Shown: positions 7,449-64,000 of the stretch, one piece after another
Position numbering within the stretch: the stretch's first letter is position 1
Layout of the letters: each line of letters starts with the position of its first letter
NCBI GenBank assembly: GCA_025617375.2
Contig: JAMYGW020000002.1
Coordinates: 1,798,001-1,862,000 of the forward strand
DNA length: 64,000 nt
Source: Acarospora socialis
Lineage: Eukaryota; Ascomycota; Lecanoromycetes; Acarosporales; Acarosporaceae
Direction: 5' to 3'
Notes under the pieces: generated by a model
What the model was told of the DNA's origin: nothing
What the model saw: only the letters and a program-made list of their open reading frames with translations
Databases searched by the model: none
Position numbers and translations under genes: made by a program

Positions 7449-7739
7449 CTCACATGATACTCTTGCCGTGAAAGAGAAAATTAGGTGAACATTTTGATTC
7501 ATCCCGCGATGGAGGATGGCTTAACATCTGTGCACTCACATGACTCAAGCCGCGGGCAAAGAAGCACAGTCAACAAGTATGTATCTACTTCAGAGTTATC
7601 AGCTGTATCAGCTGTCTTTCACAGGGAAACCTATAGAGCAAGCATTCACAAATATTGCACCAGGGGTCACTACCATTTAATATAGTTTTTAATAGCTAAG
7701 AACTGACTCGGTAAAAACCGGTTACTATTCCTGGTACAA

Positions 7740-9253: not shown

Positions 9254-10629
9254 ATGCCTGGGAATCAGTACAGTTATACTTGGGTTGGTCAGATAAAAGC
9301 AACACTGCTCAGCTCATGGATTTATGTTCTTTCTCCATCAGTACCTGCTGGCTTTGCTGTCAGATACTCCGGTCTCAGTTCTGTTGTTGTATTTACAGTC
9401 AACTTCATGGCAATCCTTCCGCTTGGCAACCTCCTCACCATCGTAACAAATGAGATGATTATCAGGAGTGGTCAGCACATGGGAATGATAATCATCATCA
9501 CCTTTGGGTATGTGGTGCTTCATATCTTGACATGTGGATATCTTGACATGTGGTCAAATACTAATGGTGAGCTTCTAGGAACGGAGTTCAGCTGGTTATA
9601 GCTATCATTGCTGTTTTCAAGCAGCAGCCTTTGATCGTTCAAACATCTTTGTTAGGTGCCATAATATCTAATACAGTGTTAATGGTGGGCCTCAGCTTCT
9701 TCCTTGGCGGAATAAATCGGCTAGAGCAACACTTCAACATCAACTCCATATCAACAAGTACGAACCTCTTTGTGCTTGGTGCCGCAGCCTTGTTTATACC
9801 CACCGCCACCGATGTATTTGGCAGCATCGCAAAGGACCTACTTTCAAGGTTATTACTGGGAATATCTGTACTCCTGCTTGTGGCCTATATCACCTATCTC
9901 TTGTTTGCCTTCAAGACACATAGAATTCTCCTCTCTTACCGGCGAGCCGCAATACATACTTCATAGAGCCAATGGGAGTGGCTGATCACGGTGTTGTTGC
10001 AAGGGCTCTGGCAATAATTGGTGGTTTTCACTCTGCGACTGCAGGAGGGCAACTCAGTCAACAGTACCCAGTGGGAGAGTCCGAGAATATTCACCTTGCC
10101 AGACTCTCAGTTCGTGGGTTGGCCATAACCTTGCTCATCGACACAGTGCTTCTGGGCTTTTGTTCAACATTCACTGTTGACAGCATCGATGATCTGACAC
10201 AGCAGACTATCCTTACTCAGAGCTTTGTCGGATTGATCCTGCTACCACTTCTTTGGGTCAATGTGCATGCAGTCTCTTTAGCCACCAAGAATGAGATGGA
10301 CCAGAGCTTCGGTATCACGATCGGCAGTAGCATGCAACTCATGCTATGTATACTTCCTCTTGCTGTCCTTACCAGCTGGATGCGCCATGGAGCGTCGATG
10401 ACGCTGCTATTTAATGGTTTCCATGTGGTCAGTCTCGGCATGGCAACCATAATGTTGAAAATTGTAACGAAAGAGGGAAGATCAAATTGGTGAGCTTAAC
10501 TTCTGGATCTTATTTGCCTTTCCTCTAGCTGATGGTAACGCAAGGCTACAAGGAATTGCGTTATTAGCACTGTATGGGGTCATTGCTTTAAGTGCCTGGT
10601 TTACTCCTGATAAGGTGCTACGTCCCTAG
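9254..10629 (+). CDS. Divergent CAX-type Ca2+/H+ exchanger homologue, probably a pseudogene or altered carrier
   Basis: Pieces are 9254-9507, 9579-about 9920, about 9922-10489 and 10545-10629. The first intron (71 nt) and the last (55 nt) have good GT-AG ends. The order matches vacuolar VCX1/CAX antiporters: SSWIYVLSPSVPAGFAVRY, QTSLLGAIISNTVLMVGLS, SFVGLILLP, TIGSSMQLML and a C-terminal SNWLQGIALLALYG. Two hallmark sites are changed. The c-1 motif GNAVE reads GNGVQ, so the acidic residue is Gln. The c-2 motif GNAAEH is missing, and the segment reads LLWVNVHAVSLA. Between TM6 (ending FAFKTH, about 9920) and the next segment the frame shifts by one base with no usable intron. So this is either a decaying paralogue or a carrier with changed ion use plus an assembly error. 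A short upstream exon may be missing. Confidence 0.65.
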
Positions 10630-21472: not shown

Positions 21473-23701
21473 CTACAATCTACCGCATAACAACCGCCAC
21501 ATGATCGTCCATATACTTACTGATATCGCCCAAAAGCACGCGGCGACAATACTAACCGCTCCAAACGCAATGCTCGCATAATAAACGTACTTGTAACTCT
21601 CCGCATACGCCACCTGGCCCGCCGTGACGACGATCTCGTACGCCGTCTCATTACTGCCAATGCCGGGGATGGTCCTGAGGCCGTCGAGCAACGTCAGGCC
21701 CGTCAGCTGGATGGCCTCGGTGATGTAGGTGACGTTGGTGATGCCGAGCTCGGAGACCATGGCGCCGCCGATGTAGTATGTGGCGCGGGGGACGAACTTG
21801 TTGACGAAGACGTTATACTTTTGTCGTGGTGTTAGTATGTTGCGTGTGCCTATAAGATGTGGAAGGCGAGGGATAGGTAGAGAACGTACGTAGACGGCGT
21901 AGCCGACAACTCCGCCGATGACGCGGATGGCGAGCGTTAGAGCGGCGATGGTGGCGATCAGGTCGTCCGGACAGATAATGGTGCTGATGATGGTGGTTGG
22001 GACGACGATGCCGCCGATGCCGAGGCCCGCGAGCACGAGGAGGCCCCAGAGCTTGGGGAGGTTGTTGGCGTCGGCGACGGCGAGGGAGCCGCAGCCTGGG
22101 AGGGTTATTCTCTTCTCTTGAATTGAAAGGGACAGGGAAGTGGTGGGCGTGTGGGAGGGCTCACCGGCTGTCATGAGGATGGCGCTGATGACCATGAGTT
22201 CCTTGATGCGGCCGCGCGAGACGCTCAGAAGCCAGAGCACGATGCAAGCGCCGGCCAGGATGCCGAAGACGATGGGCAGACTACGGATGCCGACGCCGAT
22301 TGGGTCGTGGCCGTAAACGTTAAAGGCCTGGCTGGGCCAGAACATGAGAACGCAGAAGAAGTTGGCGCCGGAAATGAAGGTGATGACGAGGGTCAGAGCG
22401 AGGATTCGAGGGTCTTGCTTAAGCCGGGCGGGGAACATGGGGAATTTGGCGAACTTGGATTCCCAGATGCAGAAGGCGATCAGGAGAAAAGCACCCAAAA
22501 TCAGAGGCACCAGGACGTGAGCGGAATTCCAGGAATACTAATACCGAATGTTAGGGACGGAGAGTATACGGACACAGGATGATGATGTGGAAGAACGTGG
22601 CTTACTTGATATCCGCCCCACTGCATGCCTGCCATAAACAGGATCATCCCGGAAATACTCAGAAAGCCTCCTGTAACATCAATCTGCCGGATCATATCCT
22701 TCCTCGTCAAGCCTTGGCTATTTACTCGTGGGGGTGGGAAGTAAAAGATCACAGTCATGATAAGCCCTGCCGCAGCCCAGACCCCGCATAGAACCCCGCA
22801 GTACCTCCACCCAGCTTTGCTGGCGATCAACTGGGCGTAGAGAACGGAAGGGCAGAATGGAATGATGCTGAAGATCATTACGGCGATGTACTTGCCGCGT
22901 TTCCGGGTGGGCGCAAGTTCGGACGTTGCGGCGAAGGCAGTAAGCTCGTTGATTCCAGCTCCGACACCTGCAAGGGTCATGCCACCTGGAAGCCAAAAGT
23001 CAGAATAAGTCGAATCTCAAAACGGAAGGATAAGAAATCAAGACACTCACAGATGAAGATGTTCATCGTATGGGCGGTAGAGCAGACAATCATGCCAATG
23101 ATCATGAAACATGAACCGACAATGGCAACATAACGGCGGCTTATCAGATCGGAAAGGGAGCCAACAAACGGACAGAGCGCCGCAAAGGCAAGAAGATAAG
23201 CCAGAACCTGACGTCGTCAGCGAAGAGGATAGGAAAGTCGAGTAGTCTCCTGTAGACATACAAACCAAACCCACCGGTCCAGCCCTCCGAGCTCACGGTA
23301 GATGTAGGCAGGAATGCCACCTATATGAACATTAGCACCTTCAAGCACTGCCGGATTGGTTGACTCCTACCAAAGAAGTAGACTGGAATCTGAGAGCCAG
23401 TCCAGAGGAAAGCCATAGCAATCAGGGACATGGTCCTCCTCATGGTCTTCTATCGGTCAATGTCAGCAGTTGAGGTCGTCTGGATGATCGAGCTAGGTCC
23501 TAGCTGAAGCCAGCTTACCGGCGGTTCTTGGTTGCGCTCTCCATCATACCCTGGATGACCTGGAACACTCTCATTGCTATGAACGGTATCGACATGTGCA
23601 TCGACGGTTGCCTTCTCCTCCATGGTAGGAGGCGTATCGGAAGAAGAGGAAGAGGAGTGCATGTTAGCGATAAAATATCGTGTTGTAGGTGTCTGGACCA
23701 A
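21473..23701 (-). CDS. MFS transporter, TRI12 (trichothecene/siderophore efflux) family, with altered C-terminus
   Basis: Exons 23701-23519, 23449-23371, 23320-23262, 23207-23051, 22985-22606, 22537-22165, 22095-21890 and 21817-21473 sum to 1782 nt, 593 residues. Possible later starts are 23662 and 23623. The body shows 14 hydrophobic segments. Motifs include FVGSLSDLISRRYVAIVGS (the MFS loop 2-3 signature), GVGAGINELTAFAATSELAP and ATIAALTLAIRVIGGVVGY, as in fungal TRI12-type pumps for small molecules or siderophores. The last coding stretch reads ACFWAISVSIW to a stop at 21473. In the next frame, after a run of four T, the same DNA reads LGDISKYMDDHVAVVMR to a stop at 21480, which is how this family normally ends. 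So a one-base loss, real or technical, appears to have replaced about 19 end residues. Confidence 0.85.
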
Positions 23702-41812: not shown

Positions 41813-42253
41813 CCTAGCGGCCGCTGGGCTTCTTGCCCTTCGTTTCCGGTTTAGTGATAGATAATAGCAGATGTTTGTCTTATGGAGCTATTGGAAGCTC
41901 CAGTTGCGGCGTGACTTGTGTAGAATTTTGGACTTCTGTGCCTAAGTTTTTGTATGCATATAGTTTCACCTGGCACCCTTCAAGGTCGCGTCGCGGTCCG
42001 CTACTTGGGTAATTTTCTAGAATTATCGACTAACTTAATGGGTACTAGTAAGCGCCAGCGAAAACTCCGTAACCGATAACGCCCTCCCGCGAAAAATATC
42101 ACACTTCAACTCTACGCCCTCATGGCCCGCCTCAATACAATCTTGCCCCCCCGCCCGGGCTCCCTCCCCCAACCCGCTCCTCCCTTACACTGCTGCCATG
42201 TCAGCCATCGTGAATCGATGACATGCTCTTGAGGTGCGAAATGGATTGCTTAC
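41813..42253. other. Intergenic: CCT3 promoter and 3' flank of the repeat-protein gene
   Basis: 441 bases. Contains a C-rich stretch (42,135-42,180) with no ORF of coding quality. Confidence 0.4.
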
Positions 42254-44640
42254 CTAAATAGTGTAATCTTCCACATGACCCCGCATGGTCATGTGGAGAC
42301 CTGGTGGTGGCCCCTGGTTTGGAGCAGCGGGATTGCGCCTCCCGCTGGGCCGAGTTTTATAACTCGACCCCACCACCAGGTCTCCCCGCCGCACCGGGCC
42401 CTCCTCCTCTTCCTCCTCCTCTGGCCCCTCCGGCCCTTTCCCCTTCCCCTTCCCCTTCCCCCTCCGCCCTTGGAGTTTGCCCCTCACAAAGGCCACCGCA
42501 GCTGCGGCGCGCCCCGTGATGGCCTCCAAGGGACGGCGGAGGTTGGAGAGGACAGAGGATCGGGCCGGAGTGCCCTCTCCCTCCGGACGGTCTGGCGACG
42601 TCGGGATGCCCGCCCGACGCGCCTCCTCCCTCCACTGGCGCATCGGGACAATGTCGGAATGACTCCCGACATTGCCCCGATGCGTCCCAACGGGCCGAGA
42701 CCGTGCGGCCTCCCGCCGCACGGCCTCGTTCCTCCGGTAAATCTCCGCGATCCAGTCGCGGTCCTCGTCCGTAACGGGATTGCTCCCGAGTGGGTTCGGG
42801 TGATTGACACCTGCAGGAGAATCTTCGTGAGCTAACTCGTCCATGACACTCACACACATGGACGTCTCATCTGAGGAGGTGTACGTACCCTCGGGGCCCT
42901 CCGGCTCTCTGGCCTTGCCCTTGCCCTTGTCCTTCCTCGAGGGGCCTTCTTCAGGCTCGCCCTCTCTCATGAGGCGCTCCCGGTTTTCTCTCTGGATGGC
43001 CTGCATCGTGTTTCTGAGTGCAGGAGGGAGTCTTCTCAATGCCTCTTCGTCAAGTTCGGTAAGTATCTCGGCTTCGTCGTCGGCGAATTCGTCTTCTGAG
43101 TTCAGAGTGTGAGTGGACGCGTTTTCAGGAGCGTGAGGTTCGACGATCAGGTGTTCGATAGCTGCGTTATTCAGAGCGCGAGCTTGCGTGATCAAGGTTC
43201 CAGGAGCGGGTACGTTTTCACGAGTGTGAGGTTCGACGATTACGTTCTCGACAGCTGCGTTATTCAGAGCGCGAGCTTGAGTGGTTAGGGTTCCAGGAGC
43301 GAGTACGTTTTCAGGAGTGTGAGTATCGACGATTGCGTTCTCGAAGGCTGCGTTATTCAGAGCGCGAGCTTGAGTGGTTAGGGTTTCGGAAGCGGGTATG
43401 TTTTCAGGAAAGTGAGTTTCGACCGATGCGTTCTCGAAGGCTGCGTTGTTCAGAGCGCGAGCTTGAGCGACTAGGTTTCCAGAAGCAGGTGTGTTGTCAA
43501 GAGTGTGAGGTTCGACGATTGCGTTCTCGGTAGCTGCGTTATTCGGAGCGCGAGCTTGAGTGGTTAGGGTTTCAGAAGCGGGTAAGTTTTCAGGAGTGTG
43601 AGTTTCGACGACTGCGTTCTCAAAGGCTGCGTTGTTCAGAGCGCGAGCTTGGGTGACTAGGATCTCAGAAATCGGTATGTTTTCAAGAGTGTGAGTTGCG
43701 ACAATTGTCCTGTCAGAGGTTACGTTGTTAAGACCGTGAGCTTGACTGATTGGGTTCTCAGGAGCGTGAACTTGCGCAGTCGGGTTGTTAGAGGTTGCGT
43801 TGTTAGAACCGTGAGCTTGACTAATCGAGTTCTCAGGAGCGTAAGCTTGCGCAGTTGGAGTCTGGAAGGTTGTGTTGTCACGAGTTGGAAAGTGAGCGAG
43901 TCGGTTTTCAGGAGCGTAAGCTTGCGCAAATGGAGTCAGGAAGGTTGCGTTGTCGAGAGTTGGAAAGTGAGCGAGTTGATTGCCAGGAGCGTAAGCTTGG
44001 GTAGCTGCAGTCTCGAACGCTGAGTTGTCAAGAGCTTGAGGTTGAACGATTCGGTTCTCAGGAGCGTAAGTTTGAGCAGTTGCAGTGTCGAACGTTGGGT
44101 TGTCACGAGCTTGAGACGGGGTGGGTATGTCGTCAAGAGCGCGAGCTTGAGTACTTGCAGACTCGAAAATCGCGTTGTCAAGGACTTGAGAGTGAGGGAT
44201 TCGGTACTCAGGAGCGTGAGCTTGAGCGATTGGAGTGTCGAAGCCTGGGTTGTCAAGAGCTTGAGACGGAGTGGTTATGTTTTCAAGAATGCGAGCTTCA
44301 GTGATTGTACCGTCAGCGGTGAGGTTGGTGAAAGCTGTGTGGGCTTCAAGTGCTTCCTCAGAAGGTGCCGGAATTGGTGGTTCTTGCTTAGTCGTCGAGA
44401 AGCTATCGTGGTCAAACGCCGGGGTGGTGGGAACTGCTAGGGTTAGCTAAGCTTTCTCGGCGACGACGACGACAACGAAGAAAACTAACTCTCAGGTAGC
44501 ACATAGGGATTCTGTTCTCTACTTGCTTCAAGACTCTTTTGTCCACTTTCATTGCCTGTCTCTGCGTCTTGGTCCATCTCAGAGCACGTCTCAACACTCG
44601 AGGGCGCCAGCATGCGTGAATATCGACGAAGACGATTCAT
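42254..44640 (-). CDS. Unrecognised 751-residue protein built from two tandem-repeat arrays
   Basis: Exons 44640-44490, 44436-42889 and 42810-42254 sum to 2256 nt. Both introns (53 and 78 nt) have GT-AG ends. The start MNRLRRYSRMLAPSSVETCS is basic, then acidic. Residues about 100-275 hold seven 25-residue repeats (example NRLAHFPTRDNTTFQTPTAQ). Residues about 276-476 hold six to seven 31-residue repeats (core TLTTQARALNNAAFENAIV). The rest is highly charged: LDEEALRRLPPALRNTMQAI, RKDKGKGKAREPEGPEG, a GKGKGKG run and an EEEEEEE run. No signal peptide, membrane segment or known domain. The minus-strand frame has no stop across 1.5 kb of repeats. The plus strand is also partly open there, but has no splice or start support. 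Function unknown; a low-complexity scaffold or nucleic-acid-associated protein is possible. Confidence 0.65.
43161..43718 (-). repeat. Minisatellite array, 93-bp unit, six copies
   Basis: The word gctgcgttRttcagagcgcg recurs at 43161, 43254, 43347, 43440, 43533 and 43626, exactly 93 bp apart, with a diverged copy at about 43719. Each unit codes for 31 residues of the repeat protein. Copies differ by point changes only, never by length. Confidence 0.9.
43761..44300 (-). repeat. Minisatellite array, 75-bp unit, about seven copies
   Basis: The word ggagcgtRagcttg recurs at 43761, 43836, 43911, 43986, 44061, 44136 and 44211, exactly 75 bp apart, with a worn copy near 44286. Each unit codes for 25 residues. 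This array abuts the 93-bp array and shares its reading frame. Confidence 0.9.
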
Positions 44641-46776
44641 CTTTTACTGGTTTATAGAAGTCTGCTTGTGTTTTCAGTTGATTCACAGTGCTCAGAAGGA
44701 TGCAGAAGTGTTATTATCTCTTCAAACGCGTTGATGTCGCTGTATTGGCAAGAGATGTTGGACTTTGAGAGTATGAAGGGTGAGGTTTGAGTCCTCAACA
44801 GCTTGAGCAGACCTATAAGCACGGACGTCCGAGCTCTGACGCTAGCAGCTCTCCGAGCCCTACTCCCTTATGAGGCTGGGCAACACTGGAACTGAGCAAC
44901 TGAGTTAGACATGGTCTTCCCATGTCTAGATTTCTCGTTCCAGCGACAAGGGGCTGAATCCGACCGTGGGTCGCGATATTGGCTTCCATCCAGTGCCCTC
45001 TCCATCTGCTTACCGTCTCCCAATTTGCCAGTACAGTCGTGTAATGTCTCTACAGCCTTACTAACTCATTTGAGTATCAGAAGCAGATATTCAACCTCTT
45101 CTGTTACAAAACAGTGTCTTGCTCCAGTGAACAGGAGAATCTTGCCAATTATACTCTACCCAAATCAAACCTTTAGTATATCGCGTTGAGACAGCGAGAG
45201 GTTCAGATCAGTTCCATCGGCAAGCATTTTTTGGAGTTACTGCTACAGAAAAGACGGATAATATTCACTACGAAGAACAAAGCTCGCAGGAGCAGCGCTC
45301 AGCGCTTTGGGCTGATGTTCGGTTAACATCTAGTTTAAATTATTCACGGTCGCATAGAACTCGTCCTCATCCCCAGCGCATGACTGTTGATTATCTGGAT
45401 TACTGTTCCACTTATACTACTATTGAGCACCTCTCAAGAATACCAACTCGCAGCAGATACCACTGCAGCCATAACCTTGAGCACTCTGACAGTAGCCAGA
45501 GCAGAGACTTTCCCCCAAAACTTCCAGCAGACGCTCGGCGAAGAATTGTCCCTGTTCCGTTCTACCGATGCATCGAGTCCCCTCCGTCCTCCTTTCCGCC
45601 TACATCTTTCACGTCCCACAATCGAAGACCTTGAGAGAGAGATTCGGGATGGAGCAGCGAGTGTCCATGTATCCCATCGCTTCTGTTGCTCCGAGTAAAC
45701 CCCCGTCCACATATGGCCTTCTATATTCTACACCTAGCGTACTCTTCCCTCAACAGCCCGACATGGCATGCTGAAGCGGTTGGCCCGTTCCCCACAACGA
45801 CCCCGCCTTGTCTGAAGTAGTTGTCGAACAGTACAGCTAGGAACCCAGGACCAAGGACCAGTACACCGACGACGGCACGAAAGAACATGGATTGGGAGGA
45901 CCGGACATTGAATCCATCCGGTGGCCTGCAAAGATCCTCCTCAGCATACTTGCCTACGCTCGACAAGTCCTTCTATAGCCAACCATCCTTGTACGACGCC
46001 CCGACCGCGAGATGGCAAGGGCGAGAAAGCGTCTAGAAGGAGCGAATGTGTTTCGTCCTTCGCAGCTTACCCACGCCCGACGAGTACTTCTACAGCCAGC
46101 CGTGTGCCTCTCCTGCTTTTGGCCACAGATGGCAAAGGACGGAAGCGTCTGCGGGAAGAGAATGAATACGCTTGGCGATGATCGTTTGTGTAGGGTTCGT
46201 ACAGAGTAAATCGTTAATAACATACATAGACCACCACTATCAATCCAACGTTAAAAAGGCTCCTAGGTAAGGTAGATAGATAATCATCCATTTCATTCGA
46301 AGCTAGATACTTCCTACTTAGAGCCACTAGATAGATCGTTGCTCTAGAGAGAGACATAAGCTACATAGATGCTACACATGGCTGCGAACGTGGACGGTAC
46401 AGGAATGAGGTAGCCGACCCATCCCTACCATCCAGCCTTCCTTCCGTCCGTCCGTCCATAAGTTGAGCGAAATACATACCTGCCATCCATAGCTACCCTA
46501 GCCACCGGCCTCAGACCCAGCCAGAACCGTAGCGTAAATTCGTCATTACATTGCCCCCTTTCCTTTCCTTCCCAGACCGTGCCTCGCCTGAGAGTACATT
46601 AGTCGTACCGTCCCGTTCCCCACCATATAGATAGAAAGAGATCATAAGCCATCCGAGCCCGGAGCCAGAGCCAGATCAGCGGAGATAGATTGTGCGCAAC
46701 CATCACATAGCCATCCAGCCAGCCATCCCACACTCAAGCCAAAGAGAAAACCGACGTCAGCCAGCCAGTCAACCAC
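44641..46776. other. Intergenic, 2.1 kb, with a small tandem duplication
   Basis: Upstream of the repeat-protein gene and downstream of the kinase gene. Some frames on both strands look mildly coding between 45,400 and 46,200 (for example a minus-strand hydrophobic stretch AVVGVLVLGPGFLAVLF near 45,840). None has a good start, stop and splice set. A (ccgt)n stretch lies near 46,445. Confidence 0.45.
45950..46180 (+). repeat. Imperfect tandem duplication, about 117-bp unit
   Basis: In one plus-strand frame, LPTLDKSFYSQP at 45950 is followed 117 bp later by LPTPDEYFYSQP at 46067. The words agatggcaagggcgagaaag and agatggcaaaggacggaag recur at a similar distance. A stop lies between the copies, so this is not a clear gene. 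Confidence 0.6.
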
Positions 46777-59592: not shown

Positions 59593-60485
59593 GCTGGTGC
59601 TGGTGCCGGAGCAAGTACGAGGGTTTGCGGGGTGCTGATGGGGCGAGTGTGCGTGGGTTTCTAAGGAAGTGGGGCGAGAGCAGGGTGGTGTGCTGATTGT
59701 TCGGAATTGGTGGCTAAAGGGAGGAATAATATGCGTGATGAGGGATGATTGTATTGTGGGGACTTTGGGATGGGGGTTGGTGAATACATAGGCTAGGCAA
59801 AATGTGGGGCCCAAAGATGTCAATGACGGTGGTGGACGTCGGTGGACTCGTGGGCTGGCTACTTTGTTGGGCACGAAGCACTACAGCGTACGTACACATA
59901 GAGACATGGGTCCGGTAAGCCCCGGACAGTGGGCGCGTGATCTGGGGTATCGTCCCAACGTGAGTGTAGGAACATAGTACAGGGGCCATTGTAGGCATCG
60001 TGAGGCCGAAGAAAAAGCAAGTGCCCAGGTTGGTGATATAGTAATTCGCCCAACGGTATCCGTGTCATTCGATATGCATTCAACGAGTAGAGGGAGGGCA
60101 GGGTTGAGAAGTATGGGTACACAACCAATGAAGCGCAAGGCTTGATGCAAACGCACTGTGCGTCGCGGGCCGTCTGCCGGGTCGGACCAAGGGGGCTAGC
60201 TCATCAGTGCTTCGCACCACACGACAAGATACCCGTCACAGACATGGGCAGCCGGACGAGCTCCCGATAAGTTGGACCAATTTCAATTCGTGGGCGCGCC
60301 ATGTGCGCCGTCTACGCACTCGGTGTGAGTTGTTCGACGACCTACAGAGGGAAGCACACCGCACAGTACAGTACGTACAAAATTCCCCCAGCCCAGGCCA
60401 TCGGTGGCGGTGTGGAGACAGTCTGCGGAGCGCTCTCCGCTTCTTACTCAAACCCCCACCCTGACCCCCACCCAACTCTCTCGTC
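59593..60485. other. Intergenic, nothing recognised
   Basis: About 0.9 kb between the small coiled-coil gene and the chromatin-type gene, both on the minus strand. No RNA gene or repeat seen. Confidence 0.45.
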
Positions 60486-63400
60486 TCACCTCCCCTCACC
60501 TCCCCTCACCTCTCCTGCCTGCCGGGCCTGCCGTGCCATCTCCGCTTCCCTCTCCCTCTCCCTCTCCTCCTCCTCCTCCGGAACCGGGAGCCCCCTCGCC
60601 CTCGTATCCTCAGCAATCATCAGACTAGCCAACCTACAAACGATATGATACTCCGTCCACTCCACCTTCCCATCCCCACCCTGCCTCAAACTCGCAACGC
60701 GCACCATATCCCGAAACTTGTCGACGATTCCCAGGTGCGTGGTGTTGATTTTGATGTTGTAGTGGTAGGTGGGGCCCCGGTAGTGGATGGTGTGGCCCAG
60801 GCAGAGGCGGAAGCCCCAGAAGCCGCTGTTGGCGGGGTTGTAGGCGCAGAAGGCGGCGTCGTGCTTGGCGCGTTGGTAGAGGGCGTTGAGGAGGTTGTAT
60901 TCGGCGTTCGTCCATGTGTGGAGGGGTCCGAGGGCGAGGGAGGTGATGAGGTTGGTGAATACGTCGAGCCAGGTTGTGGGCGGGGTGGGTGGGGGTGCGG
61001 GAGGGTGAGTGCGGATGAAGTGCAGGTAGGCGTTGAGGTAGCGTTCGGTGATTATGTCGGCTAGTTCACTGGCGCTATATGGAGGTTCGTCGACGCTGGT
61101 CGCTTGCGATGCTTCTTCAGCTTCTTCAGCTTCTTCAGCTTCTGCCTCGCTGTAGTATGTGGTTTCAGCATTCGACTCCATCTCCGCATCTTGCTCTCTC
61201 TCGGCAACCGCCACATCCTCCTCGCTGTCATACGGATCTTCCGCATCTGATGCCACCTCGGAACTTTGCTCTCCGTGCGCAGTTGCCATGGCGTCTTCGC
61301 TATAATAACTGTCTTCACGCTCGAACTCAACATCCGGGCTTGGTTCTTCTTGTGCAGTCACTACCGCTTCCTCGCTATCGTAGATGTCTTCGGCATTTGA
61401 CTCAGTCTCCGGATGATGTTCTCCTGTCGCCGTCATCATAACTTCCTCGCTGTGATCAGAACCCTCAGCGATGGTCTCAACTTGTAAAATCTGTTCTTGC
61501 TTAACAGTGATTTCAACTTCGCTCTGGAGTGAGCGTTGAATATCGGCACCCTTTGATGCATTTTTGATGGCTCTCGTTTCTTCATTCACTTTCTCAGCTT
61601 GTTTCAACATGCCAGAAACATCGAGATGACTCTCCTTCCTTCTCCTCCTCTCCTCTCTTTCTTTCGCTAATTGTATTGCCCGCTGGTCGGGCTGCCAGAA
61701 CAAGCCGGACGGATCCTCAGTACCTTCATCGCTATAGACTATCTGGCTATCCCGCCTCCAAGGGCTCGGAATCTTGCCACGCCGTGGCTTGGCGATCTCC
61801 TCTGGGAAGAGGTCGCCATCAACGGATGGTGAAGCTCGCGTGAGCTTGTTAGAAGTGCCTTCGGTCTGGCAAATGTCAACATCCGTTGCGTTGCCGGTAT
61901 CATCTTGCAGCGTTCCTGACTGATTTACGGATTCAGTGTCATCACTGTTAATGATGATGACCTGACTCGAATTTGCCATCTCAATCTGCCGACTGATGGC
62001 TTCCCTCTCCCGCTGCCATTGTTTTTGACGCCTTTCGCTATAAGTGCTCGCTACTTTCCCGTTGAATATATTCTGACTGGAGACGGAGTCGGATAGGCTC
62101 GGATTCGGCGCTTTGACAGGCGTATCTACCTGCCAGTCCATCTCATCTTCTTCTCTCTCACTTCGCTCAGGGCTTAGAAGCTGCTCTGGTTGTAGTGAAG
62201 GATACTCAATCACTTGGTGAGAAGCAATTGCGGGCGCAGGTACAGCGAGTGCATAATCGTCCTTGTCTTCCGGCGTTGGCAGTTTTGGATGGCCCGTATC
62301 GTTCGCCGCCGTAAACACATCGTCCTCAGTTGCCACCACCGCAGAGGGCTCCCCGACCTGTTGCGCATGGGCTGCCAGTTTGTGTCGTCTGGCCAACTCT
62401 TCACCAAGTCTCAGGCCTGCACGTAGCTCTCTCCTCGTACCGGCACTAAACCCCTCAAATAGATCGTCAAGGCGTTCCTTGGGACTCTTTCCGGCTACAA
62501 TGTTAGAGGATCCCTTGTTCGCAGGGCTGACATAAGGGCTTTTGAGCGATGACGCTCGCGCATTGGTCTCGCGCGCGTTGCTGTCTAATACACCCTGCAG
62601 AGCAATAGCTGCCCGAACAACACGCGATAGTTTGGGCGTATCCCGCTTGGGTTCACTTGTAAGGTCTGTTTTTTTCAGTGGAGCTCCCTGCTGAATAGGA
62701 GGTGGCACTTTTGGGGTTGGCTGAACTTTGACAGGGGTCTTTTGTTGAGCAGGCTGTATCTCTATGGGAGATCCTATTGGTACCAATGCTTGGCGAGCAC
62801 TGGCTTCCGAGAAGTCCGGCTTTATAACATGATTCTGGGCCGAGAATGAAACGCTCTTTCCAATATTGTGTTTGGGCTGATGCGGAGAGGATGTGTTCCT
62901 ACTATCCCCACCGGATTTTGAATGTTGCAAGTCAGAGTCGACAACCCTGGATTTTCCACGCCCGAGATCGGCCTCCTGCTGAATATTGACTATTGCGCCA
63001 TTTCGAACAGTGTCGGCCGCTGATGGAGAACGCGTCTCTGGTGCCTCATCACCTAGTCTAGGAGGACGTAGAGCCGGATCCGTAAGGAAATCTGTCTTTG
63101 TAGACTTGGCTTCCGACGGGAAGTTTCGGTTCGTAATGCCGCTCAGATTTTGTCTTGCCGATTCAATCGACTCCAGAGAAACCATACTGAATCCTTCGCT
63201 CTCTAGAATAGAGTCAAATTCCCGATGATCGTTTGTTGGGTCTGCAAGCATTGCCTGATCATTACCGATGGAGTCATCATCCGCGACCGCCGTATTAAGT
63301 AACGGATAGCCCGGATTGCTTAGTGTTGCTGAGTGCCGCGTTTCCTTCTCCGGGTTGTTCGGATCCTGTTGAGATGGGAAGTTCAAGGAGTCACGAGAAG

Positions 63401-64000
63401 GTGCAGTTTGGGAGACGGCTGTTGGGTGTGAATGGGCGGCTGACACCGCCTTCCGCGGCGAGCCTGACAAGGACCTATTCGGTGATGTCTCACCTAGAAC
63501 GACAGAAGAGTGGCGGATCCGACGTTTCCCCCTCCGATCAAACACGTCTCCATCAAGATCCTCATCTACCGCGATATCCACCGGACTAATAGCCTTCCTC
63601 TTGCCTCTAGCCTTCTTTGCTCGCGGTGTCGCCGCAGGCTTAGATTTTTCTGCCTCTTCCTCCATCATGACCACGTCTTCATCATCAATGACTGGCAAAC
63701 TCTTCCTTGGTCTCCCACGCCCGCGCTTCCCTGGCGTCGCGCCAACAGACAAGTCCCTGCCCGCATCATTCTCATCCGTTGTCGTCCGGCGTCCTCTCTT
63801 CCTGACCAACGCAGCGACTCCACCTCCCTTTATAGGCGACGATCCGACGTCGGACTTCCTCGATCGAGTACTCTTCCTACTCGCCGGCGGTGGAGACGAA
63901 TCTTCTAAACCTTTCAACGGTACCAGTGTCGTAGTAGTCCGCCCAGCGCCCTTCTTAGTCACTGACCTTCCATCCCTCTCGCTCGTTCGACCACCCGCAC
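60486..64000 (-). CDS. Large AT-hook, probably chromatin-associated protein, 5' end beyond window
   Basis: The frame is open from the right edge through MTKKGAG-like sequence (a GTG, not a start) to a stop at 60486, so at least 1170 residues are visible and the N-terminus is missing. An AT-hook core KRGRGRPRKSLP lies near the visible start, with other basic runs (KKARGKRKAIS, RRGKRRIRH). The middle is long, Ser/Pro-rich and disordered. An acidic five-unit repeat lies near 61,150-61,460. The C-terminal 190 residues look folded: ITERYLNAYLHFIRTHPPAP, WTNAEYNLLNALYQRAKHDA and FRLCLGHTIHYRGPTYHYN. I recall this layout from fungal AT-hook proteins of unknown role; no catalytic domain is seen. DNA binding is inferred from the AT-hook only. 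Confidence 0.75.
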   Translation of the reverse strand, partial: AGGRTSERDGRSVTKKGAGRTTTTLVPLKGLEDSSPPPASRKSTRSRKSDVGSSPIKGGGVAALVRKRGRRTTTDENDAGRDLSVGATPGKRGRGRPRKSLPVIDDEDVVMMEEEAEKSKPAATPRAKKARGKRKAISPVDIAVDEDLDGDVFDRRGKRRIRHSSVVLGETSPNRSLSGSPRKAVSAAHSHPTAVSQTAPSRDSLNFPSQQDPNNPEKETRHSATLSNPGYPLLNTAVADDDSIGNDQAMLADPTNDHREFDSILESEGFSMVSLESIESARQNLSGITNRNFPSEAKSTKTDFLTDPALRPPRLGDEAPETRSPSAADTVRNGAIVNIQQEADLGRGKSRVVDSDLQHSKSGGDSRNTSSPHQPKHNIGKSVSFSAQNHVIKPDFSEASARQALVPIGSPIEIQPAQQKTPVKVQPTPKVPPPIQQGAPLKKTDLTSEPKRDTPKLSRVVRAAIALQGVLDSNARETNARASSLKSPYVSPANKGSSNIVAGKSPKERLDDLFEGFSAGTRRELRAGLRLGEELARRHKLAAHAQQVGEPSAVVATEDDVFTAANDTGHPKLPTPEDKDDYALAVPAPAIASHQVIEYPSLQPEQLLSPERSEREEDEMDWQVDTPVKAPNPSLSDSVSSQNIFNGKVASTYSERRQKQWQREREAISRQIEMANSSQVIIINSDDTESVNQSGTLQDDTGNATDVDICQTEGTSNKLTRASPSVDGDLFPEEIAKPRRGKIPSPWRRDSQIVYSDEGTEDPSGLFWQPDQRAIQLAKEREERRRRKESHLDVSGMLKQAEKVNEETRAIKNASKGADIQRSLQSEVEITVKQEQILQVETIAEGSDHSEEVMMTATGEHHPETESNAEDIYDSEEAVVTAQEEPSPDVEFEREDSYYSEDAMATAHGEQSSEVASDAEDPYDSEEDVAVAEREQDAEMESNAETTYYSEAEAEEAEEAEEASQATSVDEPPYSASELADIITERYLNAYLHFIRTHPPAPPPTPPTTWLDVFTNLITSLALGPLHTWTNAEYNLLNALYQRAKHDAAFCAYNPANSGFWGFRLCLGHTIHYRGPTYHYNIKINTTHLGIVDKFRDMVRVASLRQGGDGKVEWTEYHIVCRLASLMIAEDTRARGLPVPEEEEEREREREAEMARQARQAGEVRGGEGR
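61146..61460 (-). repeat. 75-bp coding repeat, five copies
   Basis: The word ctcgctRt recurs at 61146, 61221, 61296, 61371 and 61446, exactly 75 bp apart. Each unit codes for 25 acidic residues of the pattern YDSEEAVVTAQEE...E. A 9-bp repeat (agcttcttc, three copies) lies just to its left and codes for Glu-Glu-Ala. Confidence 0.85.

What the first reader, a model, noticed from the sequence alone, without database searches (positions are those of the whole stretch)
42254..44640. Undescribed protein made of two abutting tandem-repeat arrays (25 aa and 31 aa units)
By hand splicing, a single minus-strand gene of 751 residues emerges: a basic start, seven 25-residue repeats, six to seven 31-residue repeats and a highly charged tail. 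Unit lengths are exactly 75 and 93 bp, and copies vary only by substitutions, which points to recent unequal exchange under frame selection. Neither repeat matches a family I know. Proteins like this can be surface, scaffold or phase-separating proteins and often vary in copy number between strains.
Basis: partly seen in the sequence, partly recalled or inferred. Interest (0 to 1): 0.75.

Follow-up and report, generated by a model that had tools for sequence, protein, structure and literature searches.

The report
Fungal repeat gene with hairpin-packed exon
A fungal gene without known relatives carries one family of repeats, not two, and its last protein-coding exon is unexpectedly built as a chain of hairpins, which is unusual in coding sequence and raises the question of how such a structure arises and survives.

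Summary
The gene and both arrays are real. A minus-strand frame of 730 codons is open, and an intron-consensus scan finds exactly the two proposed introns in 42.2-45.2 kb. The predicted protein has 751 residues (750 with a neighbouring acceptor; 777 if intron 2 is kept). Two corrections: the 25- and 31-residue units are one repeat family (the 31-mer is the 25-mer plus 6 residues; score 47.3 against 23.0+-2.2 in shuffles, 0 of 300), and copies differ as often at amino-acid-changing as at silent sites (dN/dS 1.25 and 0.83).

The surprising part was missed. The last exon (42810-42254) is a chain of inverted repeats. It folds 13 sd below dinucleotide shuffles and 12.6 sd below synonymous-codon shuffles; arrays and exon-2 tail show no such signal. 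The excess fades close to the exon's edges. A 200-kb genome sample holds no comparable run. The nearest known things are coding palindromes of nematomorph mitochondria and template-switch inverted repeats of yeast genes. Whether the hairpins are a mutational product or a selected mRNA structure stays open. No relative of the protein was found, but no fungal collection could be searched.

The parts
44490..44640 (-). exon 1, ATG at 44640, basic start MNRLRRYSRM
   Evidence: in-frame stop just upstream; open frame; needed because the 730-codon frame has no Met before the tail
44437..44489 (-). intron 1, 53 nt (GTTAGT..GCTAACCCTAG; alternative acceptor CAG ending at 44434)
   Evidence: one of only two intron-consensus matches on the minus strand in 42.2-45.2 kb
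42889..44436 (-). exon 2: N-terminal stretch, array A, array B, charged tail
   Evidence: open frame
43700..44299 (-). array A, 8 units of 25 aa (75 bp)
43118..43699 (-). array B, 6 units of 31 aa (93 bp) plus 8 residues of a seventh; same repeat family as array A with a 6-aa insert
42811..42888 (-). intron 2, 78 nt, in frame and stop-free; carries an 8-bp perfect inverted repeat 42838-42864
42254..42810 (-). exon 3: charged G/R/E/P-rich tail, 67% GC, chain of coding hairpins
   Evidence: MFE z -13.0 for 42235-42830, synonymous-shuffle z -12.6, signal over this exon, codon-position GC .707/.565/.739
42639..42684 (-). hairpin with 19-bp arms (one G.U), 8-nt loop
   Evidence: pair probability 0.998
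42696..42728 (-). hairpin with 14-bp arms (one G.U), 5-nt loop
42599..42619 (-). hairpin, 7-bp perfect arms
42295..42385 (-). 16-bp perfect arms enclosing two hairpins (42347-42370 and 42325-42347)
42270..42297 (-). hairpin, 11-bp perfect arms, 6-nt loop (its outermost bases overlap the 16-bp arm ending at 42295)

Best explanation
A gene of a filamentous fungus, without a second copy in its genome, encodes a low-complexity protein: a short basic start, one tandem-repeat family (25-mers, then 31-mers after an in-frame 18-bp length change), and a charged tail. The repeats act as a tolerant spacer: frame kept, residues drifting. The last exon is a coding hairpin chain. Most likely DNA template switching between nearby inverted repeats created the hairpins and restored their arms, and they persist because the tail has little residue constraint. 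The mRNA then inevitably carries a very stable structure at its 3' coding end. Shown: the fit of the gene model, the repeat homology, the near-neutral unit divergence, the hairpin excess and where it lies. Inferred: the template-switch origin, the disorder of the tail, and the lack of a dedicated use of the structure.
For: Repeat homology. Near-neutral divergence of units. Hairpins: 9 perfect stems of 6 bp or more (loop 3-15) against 1.86+-1.11 in 300 synonymous shuffles, maximum 6. Arms are near-perfect: 85 of 89 aligned pairs are Watson-Crick in the 7 inverted repeats (6 in exon 3, 1 in intron 2), and 4 of those 7 have spacers of 5-11 nt (the others 48, 59 and 113). Yeast coding genes undergo template switching between arms of 7 bp or more, with shorter spacers than other inverted repeats (PMC8604942, abstract and passages); template switching can make and keep RNA hairpins (PMC8794818, abstract). 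The excess is nearly as strong on the antisense strand (z -10.5 against -11.7), as a DNA-level process predicts. The tail is charged and of low hydropathy.
Against: The hairpin signal fades near the exon's edges, which a DNA process has no reason to respect, unless exon 3 was acquired as a block; intron 2 has one 8-bp perfect inverted repeat but no excess of folding. The few imperfect pairs are 3 G.U in the sense RNA, 0 A.C and 1 other, a weak sign of RNA-level selection. The protein is not unusually palindrome-compatible, though I judge that test to have little power. No relative was available to see a template-switch event directly.
Confidence: 0.4

Rival explanations
1. Exon 3 is a selected mRNA structure: synonymous codons are chosen so that the 3' coding end folds into a hairpin chain that slows ribosomes, protects or localises the mRNA, or binds a protein, perhaps its own basic tail.
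For: Synonymous-shuffle z -12.6 while arrays and exon-2 tail give -0.9 to +1.0; signal over the exon and not beyond; sense G.U 3 to 0 A.C; mean pairing probability 0.71 against 0.54-0.60 in six CCT3 windows, which are poorer in GC.
Against: Antisense fold nearly as strong; near-perfect Watson-Crick arms exceed what an RNA needs; no conservation data; the repeat part of the protein evolves nearly neutrally.
Confidence: 0.33
2. The hairpins are precursors of small RNAs (milRNA/hpRNA) made by Dicer from the mRNA.
For: Piwi-domain matches at 4 places on 4 contigs and Dicer_dimer matches at 3 (some with a stop in the searched frame); one 21-pair stem counting 2 G.U; [quoted passage not shown]
Against: Most stems are short for Dicer (recalled); no Rfam family near its cut-off (best 23.6 bits against 100); the same paper says that coding-sequence loci should be treated carefully.
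Confidence: 0.1
3. Exon 3 descends from an inserted palindromic element, as in Rickettsia genes, or from another foreign structured sequence captured as one exon.
For: Change of composition and structure at the exon; two hairpins share the core CGGGAG..CAATCCCG, whose only two places in the genome are both in this exon (the reversed control pattern occurs once).
Against: No other DNA or protein copy found in the genome, none confirmed in IMG/VR or GTDB contigs; apart from that core I saw no shared sequence among the hairpins.
Confidence: 0.09
4. Surface, adhesin or secreted repeat protein with copy-number variation between strains.
For: Tandem repeats with exact units, the usual anatomy of such proteins (recalled).
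Against: No signal-peptide-like start or membrane segment by hydropathy; basic KGKGK runs fit an intracellular, nucleic-acid-binding tail better (inference).
Confidence: 0.06

Closest known systems
Coding palindromes in mitochondrial genes of Nematomorpha (PMC6649704; abstract, introduction, discussion and passages read)
   Same: inverted repeats inside open reading frames, perfect or near-perfect arms, both arms read as protein; template switching is discussed there as a possible cause
   Different: theirs are mitochondrial, in respiratory-chain genes, up to 142 bp per arm; here a nuclear gene without known relatives, arms up to 19 bp, many hairpins in one exon
Template-switch inverted repeats in yeast coding genes (PMC8604942; abstract and passages read)
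   Same: nuclear fungal coding DNA, arms of 7 bp or more, shorter spacers
   Different: there events were found by strain comparison across 4304 genes; here many hairpins in one exon and no strain comparison possible
Rickettsia palindromic elements (as described in PMC6649704)
   Same: palindromic DNA inside genes
   Different: those are transposable elements; here no second copy in the genome was found
Fungal hairpin small-RNA loci (PMC9757828; abstract and passages read)
   Same: hairpins in fungal genes, many in coding sequence
   Different: no small-RNA evidence here
Intragenic tandem-repeat proteins of fungi, e.g. the repetitive effector Rsp3 (start of abstract)
   Same: repeated units inside one fungal protein
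   Different: no secretion signal by hydropathy, no Pfam match; no comparison with Rsp3 itself was made

Membership tests
Coding palindromes (Nematomorpha type) | inverted repeats inside an open frame in excess of codon-preserving shuffles | tested here: met
   9 perfect stems against means of 1.86 (synonymous) and 2.05 (codon order), maximum 6 in 300 shuffles of each kind
Coding palindromes (Nematomorpha type) | long perfect arms (up to 142 bp) in mitochondrial genes | tested here: not met
   longest arms 19 bp with one G.U and 16 bp perfect; contig of 3.67 Mb carrying nuclear genes
Coding palindromes (Nematomorpha type) | transcribed and translated | not testable with these tools
   no RNA-seq or proteome at hand; only codon-position GC supports translation of exon 3
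Rickettsia-like palindromic element | several homologous copies in the genome | tested here: not met
   own-genome DNA, protein and core-pattern searches give only this exon and chance-level hits
Fungal hairpin small-RNA locus | RNAi machinery in the genome | tested here: met
   Piwi and Dicer_dimer matches over the cut-off
Fungal hairpin small-RNA locus | small-RNA reads on the arms | not testable with these tools
   no small-RNA data
Known RNA family | Rfam match at gathering score | tested here: not met
   0 in the window; best sub-threshold over 42150-42900 23.6 bits against 100
Known protein repeat or domain family | Pfam, PHROGs, NCBIfam or PDB match | tested here: not met
   726-residue frame (exon 2, intron 2, exon 3): Pfam none at E<=0.1, PDB none at E<=1, PHROGs best E 0.021, NCBIfam best E 0.22; exon 1 was not searched
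Secreted or surface repeat protein | signal peptide or membrane anchor | tested here: not met
   crude hydropathy only: best 19-residue mean 0.89
Intrinsically disordered repeat protein | disorder | tested here: inconclusive

The most novel reading that the evidence does not exclude
A nuclear protein-coding exon doubles as a dedicated structured RNA: a selected chain of hairpins within the reading frame, written in synonymous codons, that controls the mRNA or is processed from it, fused to a fast-evolving repeat protein whose basic tail may bind it.
Probability: 0.22. Interest if true: 0.75.

Novelty: new variant of a known kind. Interest (0 to 1): 0.5.

Why it matters
Inverted repeats are sparse in eukaryotic coding sequence (passages of PMC13155455), and the authors of PMC6649704 know of only a few stable secondary structures inside coding sequence. 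A compact nuclear exon with many near-perfect hairpins, beside arrays that show no such excess, gives a natural test bed for one question: are coding hairpins made and kept by template switching, or selected as RNA? Orthologues in related fungi could decide. The tandem repeats alone are ordinary.

Tried and rejected
Half-unit idea: I first thought that both units were doublets of a 10-16-residue motif; the column-shuffle test does not support it (80 of 500 and 51 of 500 shuffles as good), so I dropped it.

Paralogues: own-genome protein searches give the gene itself and chance-level hits: L003 at E 0.85, L029 at 0.64 and L030 at 4.5. I read the L003 frame and checked all three for structure and frames; L003 holds a 426-aa frame with a KGKGKA stretch and no repeats of this kind that I could see. 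These searches score only the best candidates, so they are not exhaustive. Exon 1 was not searched as a protein (the DNA query included it).

Relatives elsewhere: none confirmed in IMG/VR (600 pattern stretches) or GTDB contigs (580 stretches). These are viral, bacterial and archaeal collections, so this says nothing about fungal orthologues. Metagenome scans were capped at zero.

Results that do not single out exon 3: with stems of 7 bp or more in 600-nt windows, an AT-rich stretch (L010, 28% GC) has 6 against 5 in exon 3, and L020 and L009 also reach 5, but their folds are ordinary to mildly low (z -3.2 to +0.7). The longest perfect short-loop stem (11 bp) is not unusual (synonymous-shuffle maximum 15). 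Phase of the stems (6 phase 2, 2 phase 1, 1 phase 3 of 9) does not clearly differ from codon-order shuffles (0.43/0.30/0.27 for phases 2/1/3). Protein 'palindrome capacity' is not above residue shuffles. Codon-usage scoring separates frames poorly here. Some 120-nt windows inside exon 3 have little excess (42501-42620 z 0.4; 42541-42660 z -0.7; 42381-42500 z -1.2).

Full report
Setting. The window is G000:C2:1798001-1862000 of a 31.15-Mb genome in 38 contigs. Neighbours are conserved eukaryotic genes: TCP-1 gamma (CCT3) just downstream, a protein kinase upstream, POP1, COG8 (Dor1), a UBE2O-like enzyme, WD40/RWD and RING proteins. I take it for a filamentous ascomycete from these genes and the short introns (inference). 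The ITS region reminded me, from recall only, of Botryosphaeriales such as Phyllosticta; Phyllosticta assemblies of 29-32 Mb in 14-152 contigs (passages of PMC9073689) would fit. This was not tested.

The gene. Splicing as proposed gives 751 residues. The two introns are the only two intron-consensus matches on the minus strand in 42.2-45.2 kb, of 39 on that strand of the window. Intron 1 has a doubled acceptor (751 or 750 residues). Intron 2 could be retained without breaking the frame (777). Exon 3 seems to be read in the same frame: its GC by codon position (0.707, 0.565, 0.739) has the order seen in CCT3 (0.566, 0.393, 0.574), and a KGKGK run followed by PEGPE occurs on both sides of intron 2. 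Openness alone is weak evidence there, since the other minus frames of exon 3 hold only 2 and 1 stops and one plus frame none. Codon-usage scores were too weak to add much.

The repeats. Array A has 8 units of 25 residues (44299-43700), array B 6 units of 31 plus 8 residues (43699-43118). They are not two unrelated repeats. Mean local score between units of A and B is 47.3 against 23.0+-2.2 when the columns of B are shuffled (0 of 300 as good); DNA gives 30.9 against 15.4+-1.06 in 100 codon-column shuffles (maximum 18.7). MAFFT places all 14 units in one alignment with a single 6-residue gap. An in-frame 18-bp gain or loss therefore switched the unit length, and each version then spread (inference). 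Higher-order similarity (A1 with A3, 0.81; A5 with A6, 0.87; B2 with B4, 0.91) suggests that neighbours or pairs of units were copied. Between units dN/dS is 1.25 in A and 0.83 in B (all pairs; 1.23 and 1.02 for adjacent ones). This fits a length- and frame-keeping spacer better than a fold under tight residue selection, although one position (N17) is the same in all 14 units.

The missed part. Exon 3 is full of inverted repeats. As RNA, 42235-42830 (-) folds at -354.9 kcal/mol, 13.0 sd below 100 dinucleotide shuffles. Of 319 windows of 200 nt tiling the window, the three lowest z-scores (-6.3, -6.15, -5.46; 20 shuffles each) are the three consecutive ones over this exon; the next is -4.86 at 7601. 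Permuting synonymous codons, which keeps protein and codon counts, gives -251.8+-7.0 against -340.4 (z -12.6, 60 shuffles), while array A, array B and the exon-2 tail give -0.9, -0.7 and +1.0. Exon 3 has 9 perfect stems of at least 6 bp (loop 3-15), 136 nt in arms, against 1.86+-1.11 and 24.7+-15.4 in 300 synonymous shuffles (maximum 6 and 80). The largest are 19-bp arms with one G.U, 16-bp perfect arms around two further hairpins, and 14-bp arms with one G.U. Of ten helices examined, nine have mean pair probabilities of 0.81-1.0 and one, 42788-42775, has 0.21. When the whole spliced coding sequence is folded, 171 pairs lie within exon 3 and 82 join it to the rest, so it is not a fully closed domain. 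In 120-nt steps the signal sets in at the exon's start, is absent in intron 2 and the exon-2 tail, and fades around the stop codon; inside the exon it is uneven. One G4-like run lies in the sense strand of this exon.

How rare. In twenty 10-kb stretches of the genome, 3 of 1000 windows of 200 nt fall below -5 (12 shuffles each), none adjacent to another. I folded nine other stretches of 400-600 nt, picked for low scores or many stems, on both strands: the lowest z is -5.4, against -11.7 and -10.5 for exon 3 (20 shuffles each). Among 66 GC-rich 500-nt window-strands the two that cover part of this exon (42501-43000) are lowest (-6.4, -5.5), the next is -3.2. The sample is under 1% of the genome, so similar exons elsewhere are not excluded. 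The shared core of two hairpins occurs twice in 31 Mb, both times here; the reversed control pattern occurs once.

What makes it. Two readings are close. Template switching copies one arm of an imperfect inverted repeat into the other and is documented in yeast coding genes (PMC8604942, abstract and passages) and as a source of RNA hairpins (PMC8794818, abstract). It explains near-perfect arms, the short loops of many of them and nearly equal strength on both strands. Selection on the mRNA explains why the excess keeps to the exon, the reliance on synonymous choice and the 3-to-0 excess of sense G.U over A.C (small numbers). I place the first slightly ahead because the protein seems little constrained and the stems are more perfect than an RNA requires. 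A small-RNA source is possible, since Argonaute and Dicer domains are present, but nothing points to it directly. A mobile palindromic element is disfavoured by the lack of other copies.

Compared with what is known. The nearest description is of coding palindromes in nematomorph mitochondria (PMC6649704; abstract, introduction, discussion and passages read): longer, mitochondrial and in respiratory-chain genes. Three literature searches on palindromes or hairpins in coding sequence (15 of 66, 15 of 32 and 12 of 13 papers listed) showed no title about such an exon in a fungal nuclear gene, apart from the yeast template-switch paper; I saw only listings and the passages named, and most subscription papers are not in the library. 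So I do not claim that it is unpublished.

Verdict.

Noticed in passing
window 42254-42810 (-): Chain of coding hairpins in the last exon; became the main result.
   Followed up: yes
window 44906-44928: Perfect 9-bp inverted repeat (5-nt loop) upstream of the gene.
   Followed up: no
window 9454-9496: 11-bp perfect inverted repeat with a 21-nt spacer, near a perfect 16-bp tandem duplication at 9522-9553.
   Followed up: no
window 60489-63998 (-): Open frame of 1170 codons without any Pfam match at E<=0.1; simple repeats at 60485 and 61111.
   Followed up: no
window 21476-22537 (-): Open frame whose first 108 residues match Pfam TRI12, a fungal efflux-pump family (E 8.7e-7).
   Followed up: no
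L014 4401-5000: Sequence with many GATCAGC-like short repeats (by eye) and one 200-nt window with fold z -5.8.
   Followed up: no
L005 (C28) against L004 (C18): Two rDNA copies; by eye the one on the 29-kb contig differs by several small deletions in 5.8S and ITS, perhaps a poorer assembly.
   Followed up: no
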